Below, in pieces: positions 917 through 12,401 of a stretch of 48,971 bases of DNA (its first letter is position 1; each line of letters opens with the position of its first letter). This stretch comes from Phormidesmis priestleyi ULC007. GTDB lineage: Bacteria; Cyanobacteriota; Cyanobacteriia; Leptolyngbyales; Leptolyngbyaceae. Below the pieces are notes generated by a model. That model saw only the letters and a program-made list of their open reading frames with translations, had not been told where the DNA came from and did not search any database. The translations under genes and the position numbers were made by a program. The stretch lies in the NCBI RefSeq assembly GCF_001895925.1, contig NZ_MPPI01000037.1, positions 1-48,971 of the forward strand. Direction: 5' to 3'.

Positions 917-1081
917 TCAGATGCCCTGATCGCTTGTCGGCACCCCTTTCTTCACCAACCAATCTCGAATCGCCTCCTCCAAAGCCGCAGCTTGTGTAAG
1001 TTCCATTCGCGCACAAGCCACCTCAAAGGCAATCTTCAGGTCTTTGGGAAGTTTGCCCCGCACTTCTCTAGTTTCCGCCAT
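917..1081 (-). CDS. Small ribbon-helix-helix-like protein
   Basis: A 54-residue ORF starts at ATG 1079-1081, with an AGGG-type ribosome site about 5 nt upstream on the minus strand, and stops at 917-919. The layout is a short basic strand (REVRGKLP), then two helices (KDLKIAFEVACARM and LTQAAALEEAIRDWLVKKG), as in CopG/ParG-type ribbon-helix-helix DNA-binding proteins or antitoxins. It is divergent from the gene at 1218, and the space between them holds repeated TTTACGTCAT elements that could be its operator. No toxin partner is recognised beside it. The fold is inferred from the pattern. Confidence 0.6.
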   Translation of the reverse strand: MAETREVRGKLPKDLKIAFEVACARMELTQAAALEEAIRDWLVKKGVPTSDQGI

Positions 1082-1900: not shown

Positions 1901-2527
1901 ATGAGTAAACTTGCACTCCAGGAAAACTCAGCCGCGATCGGCAACCAGTTAAAGGCTGAAATTTTGATTCAAGGAACCAAACCCTTGCTCTGGAATCACC
2001 TACAGCCATCCGAATCATTCGGCAAACGTCAAGAGCGCGGTGGCACGGCGGGTAATGACCCAACCGAATGGCAGCGAAATGTTCTGTTCACCGAAGATCG
2101 GCAGCTTTATCTTCTGCCCACTCACATCTTTGGCTGCTTCCGCGATGCTGCTAAATACACGAAGCGAGGTAGAAGCAGCCTCATGAGCCAAATGGTTTCT
2201 ACGTTGCAGGTACAAGACCGCCGCATCTACATCAACCGGTATCTGCCAGAAGAACCCATCAAAGCCAGCGAAGATATTGAGCAGGAAGTCTATATTTTCA
2301 TGAGGGTTGTCAAAAATATTGCGACTCGCGGACACAATATCCGCTACCGGGTCGCTGCTGCTCCTGGGTGGTGCTGCTCCTTCACCTTGCTGTGGGATAA
2401 AACCATCATTTCTAGGCAGGAGATGGAAGCTGTGGCAATTGATGCAGGCAAGCTTGCCGGACTGGCTGACGGGCGATCGATTGGCTACGGCCGCTTCGAG
2501 GTTTTGAATTTCTCTATTCAGGCATAG
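1901..2527 (+). CDS. Phage-like conserved protein with C-terminal GRF motif
   Basis: This 208-residue protein begins with ILIQGTKPLLWNHL (21-34). It continues with LYLLPTHIFGCFRDAAKYTKRG (69-90) and ends in GRSIGYGRFEVLNF (191-204). By memory, this order (a strand with G-x-x-PLL, an AAK helix after a LP-x-x-I turn, a terminal glycine-rich GRF strand) is shared with an uncharacterised protein of bacterial and archaeal phages. The glycine-rich finish also recalls RAMP/Cas7-like folds, but that is speculative. It is followed by the HNH nuclease gene at 2636, and the two probably form a unit. Function unknown. Confidence 0.55.
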   Translation: MSKLALQENSAAIGNQLKAEILIQGTKPLLWNHLQPSESFGKRQERGGTAGNDPTEWQRNVLFTEDRQLYLLPTHIFGCFRDAAKYTKRGRSSLMSQMVSTLQVQDRRIYINRYLPEEPIKASEDIEQEVYIFMRVVKNIATRGHNIRYRVAAAPGWCCSFTLLWDKTIISRQEMEAVAIDAGKLAGLADGRSIGYGRFEVLNFSIQA

Positions 2528-2635
2528 CTACCTAAGAGATCAAAAAGCATTACCTCTTGACTCGGCATGCTTCGGCAAGGCTAGGCGTAGGTTCGGCATG
2601 GCACGGTGACACCTTACTTCAACTGAGATTAAAAG

Positions 2636-2950
2636 ATGACTTGGACAAAACGCCAACATCCGGCACTATGGCACGAAACGTGCAAACAAATCTGGCAAAG
2701 AGACGAAGGGCGCTGCCAAGGACCACACTGCCAGCATCAGCCACTGAACTCTCTATCTCTGAAGAATGCTCACATTGACCACATTCTGGAAGTTTCAAAA
2801 GGTGGCTCAGATGCAAACTCTAATCTGCGAACGCTCTGTCGGCGCTGTCACTGCCTGCGATCCAGCATTGCCCACCAAGGCATGATTGGGGCTGCGCTTA
2901 GCGACGGTGTGATTCCTCCAAATTGGCGAACACTCGTCTGGGAAGGCTAG
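2636..2950 (+). CDS. HNH endonuclease
   Basis: This 104-residue protein carries a complete HNH/McrA-type motif. It has a metal-binding pair C27 and C32, then AHIDHI with H46, D48 and H49, Asn63 in the NLRTL strand, and C68 with C71-H72 (LCRRCH). All canonical positions are present, so it should be catalytically competent on DNA. The gene follows the phage-like gene by 108 nt; that gap contains GCATGC- and GGCATGGCACGG-type partial repeats but no clear hairpin. It could be a nicking or homing-type nuclease carried as cargo or a defence component; the sequence does not settle this. Confidence 0.8.
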   Translation: MTWTKRQHPALWHETCKQIWQRDEGRCQGPHCQHQPLNSLSLKNAHIDHILEVSKGGSDANSNLRTLCRRCHCLRSSIAHQGMIGAALSDGVIPPNWRTLVWEG

Positions 2951-2997
2951 AAAACTCTGCGATTTCCCTACACTTGCACTACTCTCTCTTTAAACCT

Positions 2998-3273
2998 ATG
3001 ACTGACTCAACCTCCACCCATTATTTAATCGATCGCGAAGAACTCCTGAGAATCCGGCAGATCAAGCTTCTAACCAACGATCGAGACTACGTTTTCTTTG
3101 CCCTCCAGATCGACTATCCGGCTAAACTCAACCCCACTATAGAAGTCAGCGCTTTTTGCGAACGATGGGAACTGAGTGATGGAAATTTCTATAAAGCGCT
3201 GGGCGAACTCCGCCAAAAAGGGATTGTCGTCTCGATCGCCAACAGCCTAAATTTGCAATTTCAGTCTTCCTAA
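2998..3273 (+). CDS. Small winged-helix-like protein
   Basis: The 91-residue reading from ATG 2998 is preferred over an in-frame upstream start inside the HNH gene. The block VSAFCERWELSDGNFYKALGELRQKGIVV reads as helix, turn, recognition helix and wing, as in winged-helix DNA-binding domains. The protein is short and ends right after the wing, so it may be an N-terminal remnant of a larger replication or regulatory protein. It is the last cargo gene before cas12k, and the gap to cas12k is 145 nt. Confidence 0.5.
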   Translation: MTDSTSTHYLIDREELLRIRQIKLLTNDRDYVFFALQIDYPAKLNPTIEVSAFCERWELSDGNFYKALGELRQKGIVVSIANSLNLQFQSS

Positions 3274-3418
3274 AATAGTTTAATTGTACTATATTAGTTC
3301 TCAAACTCTACATGCACAAATTTTCTGGACTGGAAGTGAGTCGAAAAACAATTCGAGCGCAGTTAGTAGCAACAGAATCCCGTCGCCAAGCCATCTAGCA
3401 ATTGATGACATAACCCTT

Positions 3419-5174
3419 ATGAGTTTCATCACCGTCCAATGCCGTCTTGTCGCCAGTGAAGAGATTCGTCAGCAGCTTTGGCACCTGATGGCAGATAAAA
3501 ATACGCCTCTTGTGAACAAATTATTAAAGTCCGTCAGCCAGCACGATGACTTTGAAGTCTGGCAGCGCAATGGTACAGTGCCAGACAAATCAGTCCGAGA
3601 ACTATGTAACCCGCTCAAGGTTCATCCTCAATTTGAAGAGCAGCCAGGGCGTTTTTACACCTCAGCTAGTTTGATAGTGACGTACACCTACCAATCCTGG
3701 TTGGAATTACAGCGAAAACGTCGCCGGAGCCTGGATGGGAGGCAACGCTGGCTCAATGTTGTCAAAAGTGATGCTGAGTTAGTTCAAATGAGTGGCTGTA
3801 ACATTCATACAATTCAAAACAAAGCAAAAGAAATTTTGGCACAACTCAATGTACAGTCTCCTGGGGCACAGAATCAACCTAAACAGAAACGCAAGAAAAA
3901 ACAGAATTCAAAAGCCAATGGCGATTTAATGAGCGCGCTGTTTCAAGCGTATGAGACAGTAGATGATGCCTTGAGCCGTTGTGCGATCGCCCACCTACTC
4001 AAAAATGATTGCCAGGTCTGTGAACAGGAGGAAGATCCAGAAGCCTTTGCTCAACGCATCCACGGCAAGCAGAGAAGAATCAAAGAACTCGAAGCGCAAT
4101 TAGCCAGCCGATTACCCAAGGGACGTGACCTCACAGGCGAAGAGTTTTTGGAGGTGTTATCGACTGCGACTGCCAAGGTTCCAGACGATACCATTGAGCA
4201 GATGCTCTGGCAAGCAAAATTACTGGCAAAACCTGCAACTTTACTTTATCCAATTATCTTTGGAAGCCAAACTGACTTACGATGGTCAACTAATGAAAAA
4301 GGGCGGATCTGTGTTGCTTTTAAGGCAAGAGAGCAAACAAGAGGGGGAACCCTGGCAAGCAAACTACCTCACCTTACACTGCTCTTTAGATACTCGGCTC
4401 TTGAGGGCTGAAGGCGTGGAACAGAAACGGCAGGAAGGGATCAGCCGTTTGAAAAAACAGCTAGAAGAGGCTAAAGATCCAGAAGAACTCACTGAGCATC
4501 AGCAGGCATATCTCAAACGCCAGCAATCCACTCTGACTCGCTTACAATGCCTTCCTCAACGCCAAGGTAAACCTCGCTATCAGGGGCAACCGGATATCTT
4601 TGTAGGGGTCAGCATCGGACTTATTAATCCCGTAACCGTTGCGGTTGTTAACGTCAGAACGGGTCACGTTCTTGCATACCGCAGTGTCCGTCAACTTTTG
4701 GGTGACAACTATCGATTATTCAATCGTCATCGGCAACAGCAGCAGCAAAATGCTTTGAAGCGGCATAAGAATCAGACTAAGGGCTATACCCATCAACCTT
4801 CAGAATCTGAACTTGGGCAGTATGTCGATCGCCTGCTAGGAAAATCCATCATTGAATTAGCGCAGCAATTCCAAGCAAGCGGTATTGTCTTACCCCATAC
4901 CCAGAATTTGCGAGAGCATCTGGCGGCTGAAATCAACGCAAGAGCTGAGCGGAAATCCGATTCTAAACAGGTACAAAACAAATATGCTAAGCAGGCTCGG
5001 ATCAGCATCCATCGCTGGAGTTACGATCGCCTTCTGACTGCAATCCGCGCTCAGGCAGAAAAAGCTGACATGACGACTGAAACTGCAACTCAGCCCCGTC
5101 AGGGAACCCCTCAGCACAAGGCAAGAGATGTAGCGATCGCTGCCTATCATTTTCGACAGGTTTCCTCGAATTAA
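3419..5174 (+). pseudogene. cas12k: Cas12k (type V-K effector), internal deletion and frameshift
   Basis: Cas12k is the nuclease-dead effector that guides Tn7-like TnsB/TnsC/TniQ insertion using a crRNA:tracrRNA pair. The start MSFITVQCRLVASEE and the blocks LWHLMADKNTPL, QPGRFYTSA, RCAIAHLLKN and LPKGRDLTGEE match the family closely. The C-terminal half, in the +1 frame, has GEPWQANYLTLHC, GQPDIFVGVSIGL (RuvC-I with the Asp absent, as in all Cas12k), AYRSVRQLLG, SELGQYVDRLL and HRWSYDRL. Between KGRICVAF (about 4300-4320) and EGEPWQ (about 4341) some 55 residues found in other Cas12k proteins are missing, and the frame changes, so the first frame ends at TGA 4409-4411. The two parts sum to about 585 residues against roughly 640 normally. 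It is almost certainly non-functional. Confidence 0.93.
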
Positions 5175-5415
5175 GCAATCAAAATAGTACGACCGAACCT
5201 AGACAAGTTAATATGTGAGACAACAGCGCCGCAGTTCATGCTCAAAAAGCCGCTGAGCTGTGAAAAATGAGGGGTCAGTTTGACCGTTGTAAGACGGTCG
5301 TGCTTTCCGCCCCTAAATAGTTGCCCGGTCACTGACTGCCATCCTGGCTATTATTCATTTTTGAACAATGGATGGGGATCGGAATAAGTTGCATTGAAAA
5401 GAGTCTCTCCTCCAA

Positions 5416-5556
5416 TAGACCTTTTGCGTCGTAAGCTAAAAAATGGCTAAAAGCTTTACGGGTCAGGCATTTCAGCTATTAGTGCCAGAAAACGGCTACA
5501 AGTCTTTTGACATATAAGTTTCAGGGCAATTTCTTCGCTATCACGCAAAAGGTCTA
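5416..5556. mobile_element. 141-bp MITE inside the tracrRNA locus
   Basis: TAGACCTTTTGCGT at 5416-5429 is matched exactly by its inverse ACGCAAAAGGTCTA at 5543-5556. The ends include TA, so a TA target duplication as made by IS630/Tc1-mariner-type transposases is likely. The interior has no ORF and holds further partial stems around GTAAGCT/AGCTTTAC. It separates the 5' stem region of the tracrRNA from its GGTGCGCACCCAGC region. Confidence 0.8.
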
Positions 5557-5623
5557 ATGTAACGCAGGTGCGCACCCAGCAGAAGTGACCCTAGCCTTCA
5601 GCGATGAAGGTACAGCTTAGTCT

Positions 5624-5759
5624 GTAGTAGAGTTGTTGCGAAATAAGCTTGAAAATGCCTAAAAGCCAGTCATGGCAGTCGTTTTAGGCAGTTCAGTGAA
5701 AAACCTCTAGAGGCTTACAGCGTAGAGGTTTCAGCGGCTTTGAGCGTTATTTAACAACA
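5624..5759. mobile_element. Second small inverted-repeat element in tracrRNA locus
   Basis: GTTGTTGCGAAATAA near 5632-5646 is mirrored imperfectly by TTATTTAACAAC near 5748-5758. AGTCT occurs on both sides (5619-5623 and 5760-5764) and may be the target duplication. The interior contains two hairpins, GCCTAAAA/TTTTAGGC and AACCTCT/AGAGGTT, and no ORF. It splits the tracrRNA upstream of the CCTCCGATCAAGGAGG hairpin. The exact ends are uncertain by several bases. Confidence 0.6.
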
Positions 5760-6014
5760 AGTCTTTGGCGGCTATTAATTGCCTCCGATCAAGGAGGAGT
5801 CCTCCAATTATTTTTGGCAAACCGAAGCGAGGACAAAATCCCTGGGAGGTTAGCCAAAACGTTCCGAATCCTTTTGAGATCTGACTTCTAGAACCTTTGT
5901 TGAAGACAACAGGCGATGGTTACTGCAAATGGAAGCTGCTTATTGCAAATGTCAACGCAGCTTTGGTAGTTTCCTTCTAGAAGGGCAGGCTGGGTAAAGG
6001 TTCCAGCTCTGGGA

Positions 6015-6285
6015 GTCGCAGTCAGTCTCCCAGAGAGGGGAGGGCTGAAGGTCTTACGTTCGCTATGACCCCGAAGAGGGCGAGAGTCGCAGTCAGTCTC
6101 CCAGAGAGGGGAGGGCTGAAAGCTGCCTATCCCCTTTGAGCAACACCCGCAGATATGGTCGCAATCAGTCTCCCAGAGAGGGGAGGGCTGAAAGCCGTAC
6201 ATCAAATAAAAAGCGAAAACGATCACAATTGCTCTTAGGAGGGCTGAAAGGAGCACACCCTTGGTAGATGGCGACACTAATGCGC
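6015..6285 (+). CRISPR. Type V-K CRISPR array: three repeats plus shortened repeat
   Basis: Repeats of 37 nt lie at 6086-6122 and 6158-6194, with a 36-nt version (one A lost near its end) at 6015-6050. All share GTCTCCCAGAGAGGGGAGGG and end in CTGAAAG, like the GGGTTGAAAG end of other V-K repeats. Spacers of 35 nt are at 6051-6085, 6123-6157 and 6195-6229. A shortened repeat ending at 6250 then introduces the self-targeting spacer. The third full repeat has one internal substitution (GTCGCAATC). No cas1 or cas2 is nearby, as usual for V-K. None of the first three spacers matches elsewhere in the window by eye. Confidence 0.93.
6237..6285 (+). other. Shortened repeat and tRNA-targeting (homing) spacer
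   Basis: Only the repeat's 3' part survives here (GGAGGGCTGAAAG, ending at 6250), keeping the 8 bases that pair with the tracrRNA anti-repeat. The spacer begins GAGCACACCCTTGGTA (6251-6266), identical to 16 nt of the adjacent tRNA-Thr on the minus strand; identity stops at base 17. A short match behind an atypical repeat is the known form of the homing crRNA in V-K CASTs. The remainder of the spacer runs into the first TnsB-type repeat of the transposon end. Confidence 0.9.
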
Positions 6286-6402
6286 GAAAAGCATTCTGTT
6301 GGCAACTTACGACATTAATGTGCGAAATAATGAGGTTGTGTAGCAGTTTGACCGAAAACGACACTAATGTGCGAACAGTGACATTTAATGTGCGAACGTA
6401 CA
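6273..6402. mobile_element. CAST transposon end with four TnsB-type repeats
   Basis: Four copies of a GACAnTAATGtGCGAA motif lie at 6273-6288, 6311-6326, 6360-6375 and 6380-6396 (the last with one extra T). The element ends at 6402; read from outside it starts TGTACGTTCGCACATTAA, and the TGTAC- start is typical of V-K CAST ends. The flanking TTTAG at 6403-6407 would be the 5-bp target duplication, which predicts the same pentamer beyond the unseen far end. No matching end was found elsewhere in the window. Confidence 0.88.
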
Positions 6403-6414
6403 TTTAGATTTGAA

Positions 6415-6486
6415 AGCCCGTGATCAGGATTGAACTGATGACCTCACCCTTACCAAGGGTGTGCTCTACCACTGAGCCACACGGGC
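6415..6486 (-). tRNA. tRNA-Thr (GGT anticodon)
   Basis: The minus strand gives acceptor GCCCGTG pairing with CACGGGC, D-stem GCTC/GAGC, anticodon stem CACCC/GGGTG around loop TTGGTAA (anticodon GGT), and T-loop GTTCAATCC. The CCA is not encoded. The gene is complete: the transposon sits 12 bp beyond its 3' end, so function is preserved. It is the target of the homing spacer. Confidence 0.95.
6451..6470 (-). other. Homing protospacer and GGTA PAM in tRNA-Thr
   Basis: Bases 6451-6466 on the minus strand equal the first 16 nt of the homing spacer. The four bases directly upstream on that strand (6470 to 6467) read GGTA, fitting the GTN/GGTN PAM known for Cas12k. From the PAM edge to the transposon end at 6402/6403 is 64 bp, inside the 60-66 bp window reported for V-K insertion. 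Confidence 0.9.
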
Positions 6487-11261: not shown

Positions 11262-12401
11262 CTATTTAGCGGACACCTTGATTGTATCTAACGTCGCCGA
11301 AACTTTGGTTGCTAACTCGTCAGGCAGAGGAATATAGCCCAACTCGGTTGCATATTGCTTGCCATCTTTGACAGACCAGCGCAAGAATTCTGCCATTTCT
11401 TTGGCTTTTGCAGCGTCTTTGGGTTGCTCATAAAGCAGCATCCAAGTCAAGCTGACGATCGGATAAGCCTCTTTGCCTGCCGGATCAGGAACCTGTAGCG
11501 CAAAGTCAGCCGGAACCGTTTCTCCTTCAAGGGCCTTTGCCGCTGCTTCTGGCGTGGGAGCAATAAATGCACCTGCTTTGTTTTGCAGCGTGGCAGTTTT
11601 AAGCTGAGTCTGTTTAGCGAAAGAAAACTCGGTGTAGCCGATCGCGCCTTTGGTCTGCTGAATACTTGCGGCTACCCCTTCATTGCCTTTTGCCCCGGTT
11701 CCGGCAGCAGGCCACTCAACGGTTTTGCCTGATCCTGCTTTCCAATTTGGGCAAGCTTTGACGAGATGTTTTGTAAAAATGTCGGTGGTGCCGCTGCCAT
11801 CAGAGCGGTGAACGAAGGTAATCGCGTCACCCGGTAGCGTCACCCCAGCGTTGTCTTTGGCAATTTTGGGATCGTTCCAAGTCTTGATCGAGCCGTCGGC
11901 AATTCCGCAGAAGGCTTCACGAGACAGCTTTAAGTTGTCAACTCCGTCGAGGTTGTAGGCGAATACCACAAATAAGCCTGTCGTAGGAACTTGGATGGCG
12001 CTACCCCGATCGGCAGGCAATTTGCTGCGCTCATCTGGCTTCAACACTGCATCGGTCGCACCAAAGTCAACGGTTTGATCTAAAAATCGCTTAACTCCGG
12101 CACCACTGCCTACCGAGTCATAGCTGATTTGAACGGTTGGCTTTAGCTTGTTATATTCCTGAAACCAGCGTTGATAAACAGGGTTAGGAGCTGTCGCTCC
12201 CGCCCCGCTAATTGAAAGGGTGGCACCTCCGCCAGCAGCAGGGCTGGCGCTTTCAGCAGGAGCGTTAGCTCCAGGAGGGGCGGTTGGCGTTTGCGGGCTG
12301 CAAGCAGCTAACCCCAGGGCAAGGGCGGTCAAGCAGGGAACTTGCTTTGCAAACGCAGGAATTAAGAATCCCCAACGGGTTGCACTTAAGGAAAAGGCCA
12401 T
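11262..12401 (-). CDS. pstS: Phosphate-binding protein PstS
   Basis: This periplasmic receptor of 379 residues has a hydrophobic signal sequence ending in a lipobox-like LALGLAAC (about residues 27-34), followed by a Pro/Ala-rich linker. The core has SISGAGATAPNPVYQRWF, GSGAGVKRFLD, FGATDAV and HRSDGSGTTDIFTKHL, the phosphate-contacting loops of PstS. It heads the pst operon, and a candidate Pho box lies about 50 nt upstream of the start. The lipoprotein state is inferred from the lipobox. The coding strand is complete. Confidence 0.96.
   Translation of the reverse strand: MAFSLSATRWGFLIPAFAKQVPCLTALALGLAACSPQTPTAPPGANAPAESASPAAGGGATLSISGAGATAPNPVYQRWFQEYNKLKPTVQISYDSVGSGAGVKRFLDQTVDFGATDAVLKPDERSKLPADRGSAIQVPTTGLFVVFAYNLDGVDNLKLSREAFCGIADGSIKTWNDPKIAKDNAGVTLPGDAITFVHRSDGSGTTDIFTKHLVKACPNWKAGSGKTVEWPAAGTGAKGNEGVAASIQQTKGAIGYTEFSFAKQTQLKTATLQNKAGAFIAPTPEAAAKALEGETVPADFALQVPDPAGKEAYPIVSLTWMLLYEQPKDAAKAKEMAEFLRWSVKDGKQYATELGYIPLPDELATKVSATLDTIKVSAK

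What the first reader, a model, noticed from the sequence alone, without database searches (positions are those of the whole stretch)
6237..6470. Homing crRNA matches tRNA-Thr for 16 nt; GGTA PAM; insertion exactly 64 bp away
Seen directly: spacer bases 6251-6266 equal minus-strand bases 6466-6451 of tRNA-Thr(GGT), the preceding four target bases are GGTA, and the element ends at 6402. The 64-bp spacing falls in the 60-66 bp range known for V-K transposition. The match stopping at base 17 agrees with short-match homing guides. tRNA-Thr(GGT) as the attachment site is a specific, testable trait of this lineage.
Basis: partly seen in the sequence, partly recalled or inferred. Interest (0 to 1): 0.9.

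Follow-up and report, generated by a model that had tools for sequence, protein, structure and literature searches.

The report
Fossil RNA-guided transposon beside tRNA-Thr
A broken-down jumping element in a cyanobacterium still carries the short guide that once parked it just behind a threonine tRNA gene, and comparison with many relatives suggests these guides usually read tRNA genes from one favoured spot.

Summary
A truncated repeat (6238-6250) and spacer (6251-6267) match tRNA-Thr(GGT) over 16 of 17 nt, PAM GGTA. The left end stops at 6402, 64 nt from the PAM and 12 nt past the tRNA.

This is a type V-K CRISPR-associated transposon. Truncated homing guides to tRNA genes are published for this kind, so it is a new member of a known kind. 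The copy looks dead: cas12k has a deletion and frameshift, two inserts sit in the tracrRNA region, and tnsB, tnsC and tniQ were not found in the assembly.

The "lineage trait" claim fails.

A survey of 163 loci gave one result I have not seen in print: guides favour one tRNA register (PAM at D-loop G18-G19, spacer nt 22-38), 38 of 62 distinct tRNA guides against 10 expected.

The parts
6415..6486 (-). tRNA-Thr(GGT), the attachment gene
   Evidence: ARAGORN and Rfam RF00005, 68.8 bits
6467..6470 (-). PAM GGTA = tRNA D-loop G18 G19 T A
   Evidence: sequence; register by anticodon position
6450..6466 (-). protospacer, tRNA positions 22-38 (16 of 17 bases match the guide)
6251..6267 (+). 17-nt anchor (homing) spacer; base 17 mismatched
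   Evidence: its 16-mer has only two places with <=2 mismatches in the assembly
6238..6250 (+). truncated repeat R* GGAGGGCTGAAAG (13 nt), like the 3' end of the array repeats
   Evidence: same layout in relatives
6272..6402 (-). left end of the element: TGTACG terminus and repeated TTCGCACATTAATGTCG motifs (putative TnsB sites)
   Evidence: 78% identical to the G131 left end over 96 nt
6403..6407 (.). target-site duplication TTTAG (second copy outside the right end on contig C104)
6015..6194 (+). CRISPR array, three 37-nt repeats
   Evidence: family D1; aligns with relatives
5209..5860 (+). tracrRNA region (limits inferred from the published start site 35 nt after the cas12k stop and from conservation)
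   Evidence: alignment with three relatives; PMC9938897 passage
5413..5562 (.). about 145-bp repeat inserted in the tracrRNA region; three more 99% copies in the assembly
5629..5765 (.). second insert of about 137 bp in the tracrRNA region, absent from G131 and Elainella; no further copy found in the assembly
3419..5174 (+). cas12k, broken: frame A to about 4323, frame B from about 4320; about 170 nt missing relative to Elainella saxicola
   Evidence: NF038191 in two frames; tblastn and blastn
1969..3274 (+). cargo module (208-aa unknown, HNH nuclease, small protein) shared at 85% with the second V-K relic on contig C42

Best explanation
This is the left part of a type V-K CRISPR-associated transposon. 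Long ago Cas12k, loaded with a short guide made from the truncated repeat and spacer at 6238-6267, recognised the D-loop GGTA and the following bases of tRNA-Thr(GGT) and directed insertion about 64 nt downstream, just past the tRNA 3' end, duplicating TTTAG. Shown here: guide, PAM, spacing, both ends, duplication, and the same architecture at the same tRNA in Tildeniella nuda. Inferred from the published mechanism: insertion driven by Cas12k, TniQ, TnsC and TnsB. The copy then decayed: cas12k deletion and frameshift, two inserts in the tracrRNA region, transposition genes not found in the assembly, guide base 17 mismatched. Across the family the guide most often sits in one tRNA register (PAM = G18-G19, spacer = nt 22-38), which places the insertion a few bases past the gene.
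For: Exact 16-nt inverted match, PAM and spacing; the 16-mer at only two places in the assembly; right end with the same TTTAG on C104, 157 of 239 aligned bases identical to the T. nuda right end; Cas12k family hits; T. nuda element at the same tRNA with a 17-of-17 guide; survey with controls; decay.
Against: The element's middle is not assembled: the window contig starts inside it and C104 stops about 540 bp inside it, so the two ends are linked only by terminus homology and the 5-bp duplication. No empty-site relative was found. The T. nuda element at the same site lacks an obvious 5-bp duplication (CCTTG outside the left end, AAATG outside the right end).
Confidence: 0.93

Rival explanations
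1. The 16-nt match is a tRNA fragment left by a tyrosine-recombinase island (att duplication), not a guide.
For: tRNA genes are common integrase sites, and partial tRNA copies occur in relatives.
Against: The copy is inverted, begins exactly after a 13-nt CRISPR repeat end, and has the V-K PAM and spacing. A guide of this layout was found in 127 of 163 Cas12k loci, 113 of them aimed at a tRNA gene, and the ends carry V-K-type termini with a 5-bp duplication.
Confidence: 0.02
2. The guide did not drive this insertion. The element landed there otherwise (untargeted or by an array spacer) and the matching guide was fixed later.
For: Sequence alone cannot date the guide. Guides differ between closely related elements, so they can be exchanged.
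Against: The spacing is 64 nt; in the survey 43 of 62 distinct tRNA guides have a terminus of this type 50-69 nt from the PAM, and 45 of the 55 such termini seen within 140 nt fall there. A guide acquired afterwards would be under no such constraint. The 2024 review says nearly all natural V-K insertions are explained by an att guide (PMC11406308).
Confidence: 0.06
3. The element is still mobile, helped by proteins supplied by another element or by parts lost in assembly gaps.
For: Both contigs break inside the element. A second Cas12k exists on C42.
Against: tnsB, tnsC and tniQ were not found in a 99% complete assembly. With the same queries tnsB-like matches were found in 9 of 9 and tniQ-like matches in 6 of 6 other genomes (some of these at 34-48% identity and perhaps from other Tn7-like elements; tnsC had no control). 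The C42 Cas12k is 36% identical to T. nuda's and lacks its N-terminal part. The tracrRNA region is interrupted.
Confidence: 0.07

Closest known systems
Type V-K CAST with truncated repeat and 17-nt anchor spacer (Ziemann et al. 2023, PMC9938897, passages seen; Hsieh & Peters 2021 and Saito et al. 2021 known only as citations, not held)
   Same: R* of about 12-13 nt, 17-nt spacer, GTN PAM, target in a tRNA gene beside the left end, PAM-to-left-end distance in the published 46-82 nt
   Different: Guide matches 16 of 17; cas12k and tracrRNA region broken; transposition genes not found in the assembly
Tildeniella nuda U140 V-K element (G258, JAHHIG010000001.1, L145)
   Same: Same tRNA-Thr(GGT), same PAM and register, same terminal repeats; 17-of-17 guide
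   Different: Carries tnsB, tnsC, tniQ and an open cas12k; no clear 5-bp duplication; its Cas12k is in a sister group, not nearest to the window's
   Same: Nearest Cas12k relatives (SH-aLRT 100 for the three)
   Different: G131's guide targets tRNA-Thr(TGT); on the Elainella contig no guide or left end was found before the contig stops

Membership tests
Type V-K CAST | Cas12k effector | tested here: met
   NF038191 over the cut-off in both halves, but the gene is frameshifted
Type V-K CAST | tnsB, tnsC and tniQ in the element | tested here: inconclusive
   None found in the assembly, but the middle of the element is unassembled; T. nuda has all three. I therefore call this a relic of a V-K CAST, not an intact one
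Type V-K CAST | CRISPR array with 37-nt repeats and a tracrRNA beside cas12k | tested here: met
   Array met; the tracrRNA region aligns with relatives but carries two inserts
Type V-K CAST | left and right ends of V-K type with repeated TnsB-like motifs | tested here: met
   Left end at 6402 and right end on C104; the right-end terminus reads TGCACG, one base off TGTACG
Type V-K CAST | 5-bp target duplication (length recalled) | tested here: met
   TTTAG on both sides
Type V-K homing guide | truncated repeat + 17-nt spacer, GTN PAM, PAM-left end distance in the published 46-82 nt | tested here: met
   13-nt R*, GGTA, 64 nt; 16 of 17 spacer bases match
Type V-K CAST | naturally inactive RuvC site | not tested
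   active-site residues not examined
Type V-K CAST | RNA-guided insertion activity | not testable with these tools
   needs a transposition assay

The most novel reading that the evidence does not exclude
V-K transposons read tRNA genes from a preferred, conserved register. The PAM is the D-loop G18-G19, the 17-nt guide runs from nt 22 to the last base of the anticodon loop (38), and the fixed spacing drops the element 2-14 bp past the gene. They change host tRNA by replacing the guide cassette, largely within this register. That would account for the attachment-site switching that the 2024 review calls unexplained.
Probability: 0.5. Interest if true: 0.65.

Novelty: new member of a known kind. 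Interest (0 to 1): 0.45.

Why it matters
The element itself is an ordinary, decayed V-K transposon whose guide still fits its target: a clean fossil of RNA-guided homing with both ends and the duplication recovered. The wider result is more useful. If V-K guides prefer one tRNA register and swap the guide largely within it, one can predict where an unseen element will sit, which tRNAs can serve (long-arm tRNAs need a later PAM), and why closely related elements use different tRNAs. It also points to 17-nt guides and landing sites behind tRNA genes for RNA-guided insertion tools.

Tried and rejected
Chance match: rejected by the two-places-only result in the assembly and by reversed and shuffled spacer controls. 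Integrase-type tRNA fragment: rejected (inverted copy after R*, V-K ends, TTTAG duplication). Empty site in relatives: not found. Of 30 fetched loci (the best matches) 27 hold tRNA-Thr(GGT), and the 150 nt past it carry an end of this type only in the window and T. nuda (2 of 27). The lipoprotein and tadA beside the right end match nothing but their own locus among the loci held (L037-L078), and the lipoprotein is absent from the same-genus genome G095 (11 of 58 genomes have a match, own included; the neighbourhoods of those ten others were not examined). Idea that the D-loop is preferred over the T-loop because guides there are more specific: not supported (mean matches between isoacceptors in the first 8 nt 3.75 against 4.14). 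Rfam at gathering thresholds: only tRNAs. Plasmid Cas12k relatives: two distant hits, not followed.

Limits of the survey: set A is 80 places from the upper part of the list (truncated matches G247, G373 and G379 and everything lower down left out); set B is the best 80 of 181 confirmed loci; the sets overlap (for example L083 is G084 and L145 is G258). Of 163 loci 36 gave no guide, 14 of them with under 1600 nt in the stretch scanned. The scan forced spacer positions 1-4 to match; without that rule two more loci appear (L096, L138), so mismatches at positions 1-4 are undercounted. Element ends were recognised only by G[TC]ACA; 19 of 62 distinct guides show none at 50-70 nt, and the range quoted was bounded by its own 50-70 filter, so I use. 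The tree is a quick one in which long branches meet; C42's Cas12k was too short and was dropped from it.

Full report
What was claimed and what is there. The window is the start of contig C8 of a 5.68-Mb cyanobacterial assembly in 118 contigs. At 6238-6250 lies GGAGGGCTGAAAG, like the 3' end of the array repeats at 6015-6194, followed by the spacer 6251-6267. Bases 6251-6266 are the exact reverse complement of 6451-6466 in tRNA-Thr(GGT), the PAM reads GGTA, and base 17 differs (guide G, target A). The element's terminus TGTACGTTCGCACATTAAATGTC ends at 6402. PAM to element is 64 nt and tRNA 3' end to element is 12 nt. With up to 2 mismatches the 16-mer occurs only at these two places in the assembly.

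The far end. A search of the assembly for the terminus (up to 3 mismatches) gives two places, 6380-6402 and contig C104 177728-177750. The C104 copy is preceded by TTTAG, the same five bases that follow 6402, and 157 of 239 aligned bases are identical to the right end of the Tildeniella nuda element. A chance 5-bp agreement is about 1 in 1024. C104 ends about 540 bp inside the element and C8 begins inside it, so the middle is not assembled. Its other refutation, an empty-site relative that still has the repeats, could not be run fully: of 30 loci fetched from relatives, 27 hold tRNA-Thr(GGT), and this end type lies beside it only in the window and T. nuda, but none of those relatives could be shown to have the same flanking genes.

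State of the element. Cas12k (NF038191) is hit in two frames, profile 2-305 and 349-629. Against T. nuda it aligns to residues 1-301 in one frame and again from about residue 365 in another; against Elainella saxicola E1 about 170 nt are missing near 4323-4344. The tracrRNA region carries two inserts that G131 and Elainella lack; the first, about 145 bp, has three further 99% copies in the assembly. With T. nuda queries, tnsB gives no match in the own genome but matches in 9 of 9 other genomes, and tniQ none but matches in 6 of 6; several of those matches are at 34-48% identity and may belong to other Tn7-like elements, which shows the search reaches that far. tnsC gives no match, with no control run. 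The second own Cas12k, on C42, also lacks its N-terminal part; it sits beside tRNA-Val(TAC) with a 17-of-17 guide. I conclude that the window element is a relic; loss in assembly gaps is not excluded.

Same tRNA elsewhere. T. nuda (G258 = L145) has an element at the same tRNA-Thr(GGT), with a 17-of-17 guide and the same terminal repeats. G118 uses the same register with one mismatch. G150, G330 and G350 have guides in the same tRNA that start at position 44 with PAM GGTG. In a Cas12k tree the window groups with G131 and Elainella (SH-aLRT 100), and G131 targets tRNA-Thr(TGT); T. nuda and G118 are in the sister group with tRNA-Thr(TGT) and tRNA-Ala(CGC) users. So tRNA-Thr(GGT) is not a trait of one lineage.

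Survey. I took 163 loci: 80 from the upper part's list (fetched), 80 named loci, and the window, C42 and T. nuda. The sets overlap. A guide after GAAA[GC] with an NGTN target was found in 127 of 163, and 113 of the 127 targets lie in tRNA genes. In 113 of 113 the tRNA points at the element. Without the seed rule 129 of 163 have 0-2 mismatches; reversed or shuffled spacers give 0 of 163 at up to 3, and 6 and 7 at 4.

Register. Of 62 distinct tRNA guide-target pairs, 38 start at tRNA position 21 or 22 with PAM GGTA or GGTT (the D-loop G18-G19), 4 start at 18-19 with AGTG, 10 start at 55-56 in the T-loop, and 10 start elsewhere. Picking at random among the NGTN sites of the same tRNAs whose insertion would clear the gene gives 10.1 expected for 21/22; none of 100,000 simulations reached 38 (largest 25). 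The T-loop is not enriched: 10 against 11.8. Counting each isoacceptor and register once, 18 of 36 are D-loop against 5.4 expected. A terminus of the G[TC]ACA type lies 50-69 nt from the PAM in 43 of 62 distinct guides; of 55 such termini within 140 nt, 45 fall in that range and none inside a tRNA gene; 19 of 62 show none at 50-70 nt. In the D-loop register the element then lies 2-14 nt past the gene. Long-arm tRNAs (Leu, Ser), where a D-loop PAM would bring the insertion into or to the very end of the gene, start at 47 or later in 5 of 5 cases, against starts after 22 in 15 of 57 others (Fisher p 0.0024; three of the five had a D-loop GTN on offer).

Switching. On the tree (66 labelled tips) the isoacceptor changes at least 41 times, the register 15 times, and D-loop versus not 7 times; shuffles give means of 51, 27 and 22, and none of 2000 was as low in any of the three. 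The raw counts are not strictly comparable, since there are 20 isoacceptor states and 8 registers, and the isoacceptor too is somewhat conserved. A weaker result: of 34 nearest-neighbour pairs with different isoacceptors, 18 share the register, against 37% expected for random tips. So register is sticky, not fixed. In 9 chosen close pairs with different tRNAs (5 of them in the same register) 4-11 of 17 spacer bases are shared, the last bases of R* are kept, the 120 nt upstream are 36-49% identical and the stretch from spacer to PAM 29-61%, with the identity concentrated in the end repeats. This looks like cassette replacement rather than point change; it is an inference from nine pairs. The pairs and tips are not independent, so the probabilities are guides, not proofs.

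What is known. A truncated repeat of about 12 nt, a 17-nt anchor spacer, a GTN PAM and a tRNA beside the left end are described in PMC9938897 (passages). PMC12719977 gives 13-nt repeat plus 17-nt spacer (passages). PMC11406308 says most V-K attachment sites are diverse tRNA genes and that their more dynamic use is for unknown reasons (passages and section 3.4). PMC9876797 shows a 17-bp guide-target heteroduplex with S15 and TniQ near its PAM-distal end (passages). The 60-66 bp spacing is recalled from Strecker et al. 2019. A D-loop register was not found in print by searches for CRISPR-associated transposon + tRNA gene + D-loop + PAM (0 papers), Cas12k + tRNA-Thr (0) and Cas12k + anticodon (2 papers, on other subjects by their listed titles). 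Hsieh & Peters 2021 and Saito et al. 2021, the likeliest places, are not held, so novelty of the register is open.

Verdict. The register preference is the part worth carrying forward.

Noticed in passing
survey loci (one search list): Guide-target mismatches pile up at spacer positions 14-15 (18 of 40 distinct events, binomial p 8e-6 against a flat spread over 5-17) and are rare at 16-17 (5), across D-loop, T-loop and non-tRNA targets. No explanation; events are not fully independent and positions 1-4 were forced to match.
   Followed up: partly
window 1969-3274 and contig C42 44705-43397: The two V-K relics of this genome share a 1.3-kb cargo module (HNH nuclease and two unknown proteins) at 85% DNA identity, although the C42 Cas12k is only 36% identical to T. 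nuda's, which is 49-55% identical to the window's. Cargo seems to have moved between elements.
   Followed up: partly
L046 about 1488-1499 and L067 about 12018-12029: The T. nuda element at the same tRNA shows CCTTG outside the left end and AAATG outside the right end, so no clear 5-bp duplication, though the longer flanks CCTTGAAATG and CCTTAAAATG are alike.
   Followed up: no
window 5413-5562: A short repeat of about 145 bp with inverted ends (TAGACCTTTTGCG, seen by eye) and four copies at 99% or more in the assembly, probably a MITE.
   Followed up: partly
window 917-1081 (minus): Small ribbon-helix-helix protein (PF21432) about 2.3 kb from cas12k; V-K elements can carry Arc-type regulators, described as next to the cas12k start.
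   Followed up: no
L038 about 1345-1400 and G197:C1:2196925-2196979: Partial copies of tRNA-Tyr and tRNA-Thr near the intact genes in relatives, possibly scars of other integrations.
   Followed up: no
L078 947-1500: A small lipoprotein gene reads across the right end of the element, so the insertion probably changed its last residues.
   Followed up: no
14 survey loci without tRNA target: Eleven distinct guides match DNA where ARAGORN calls no tRNA, for example GACTGCCTGACTC in L156, L159 and L182; these targets were not identified.
   Followed up: no
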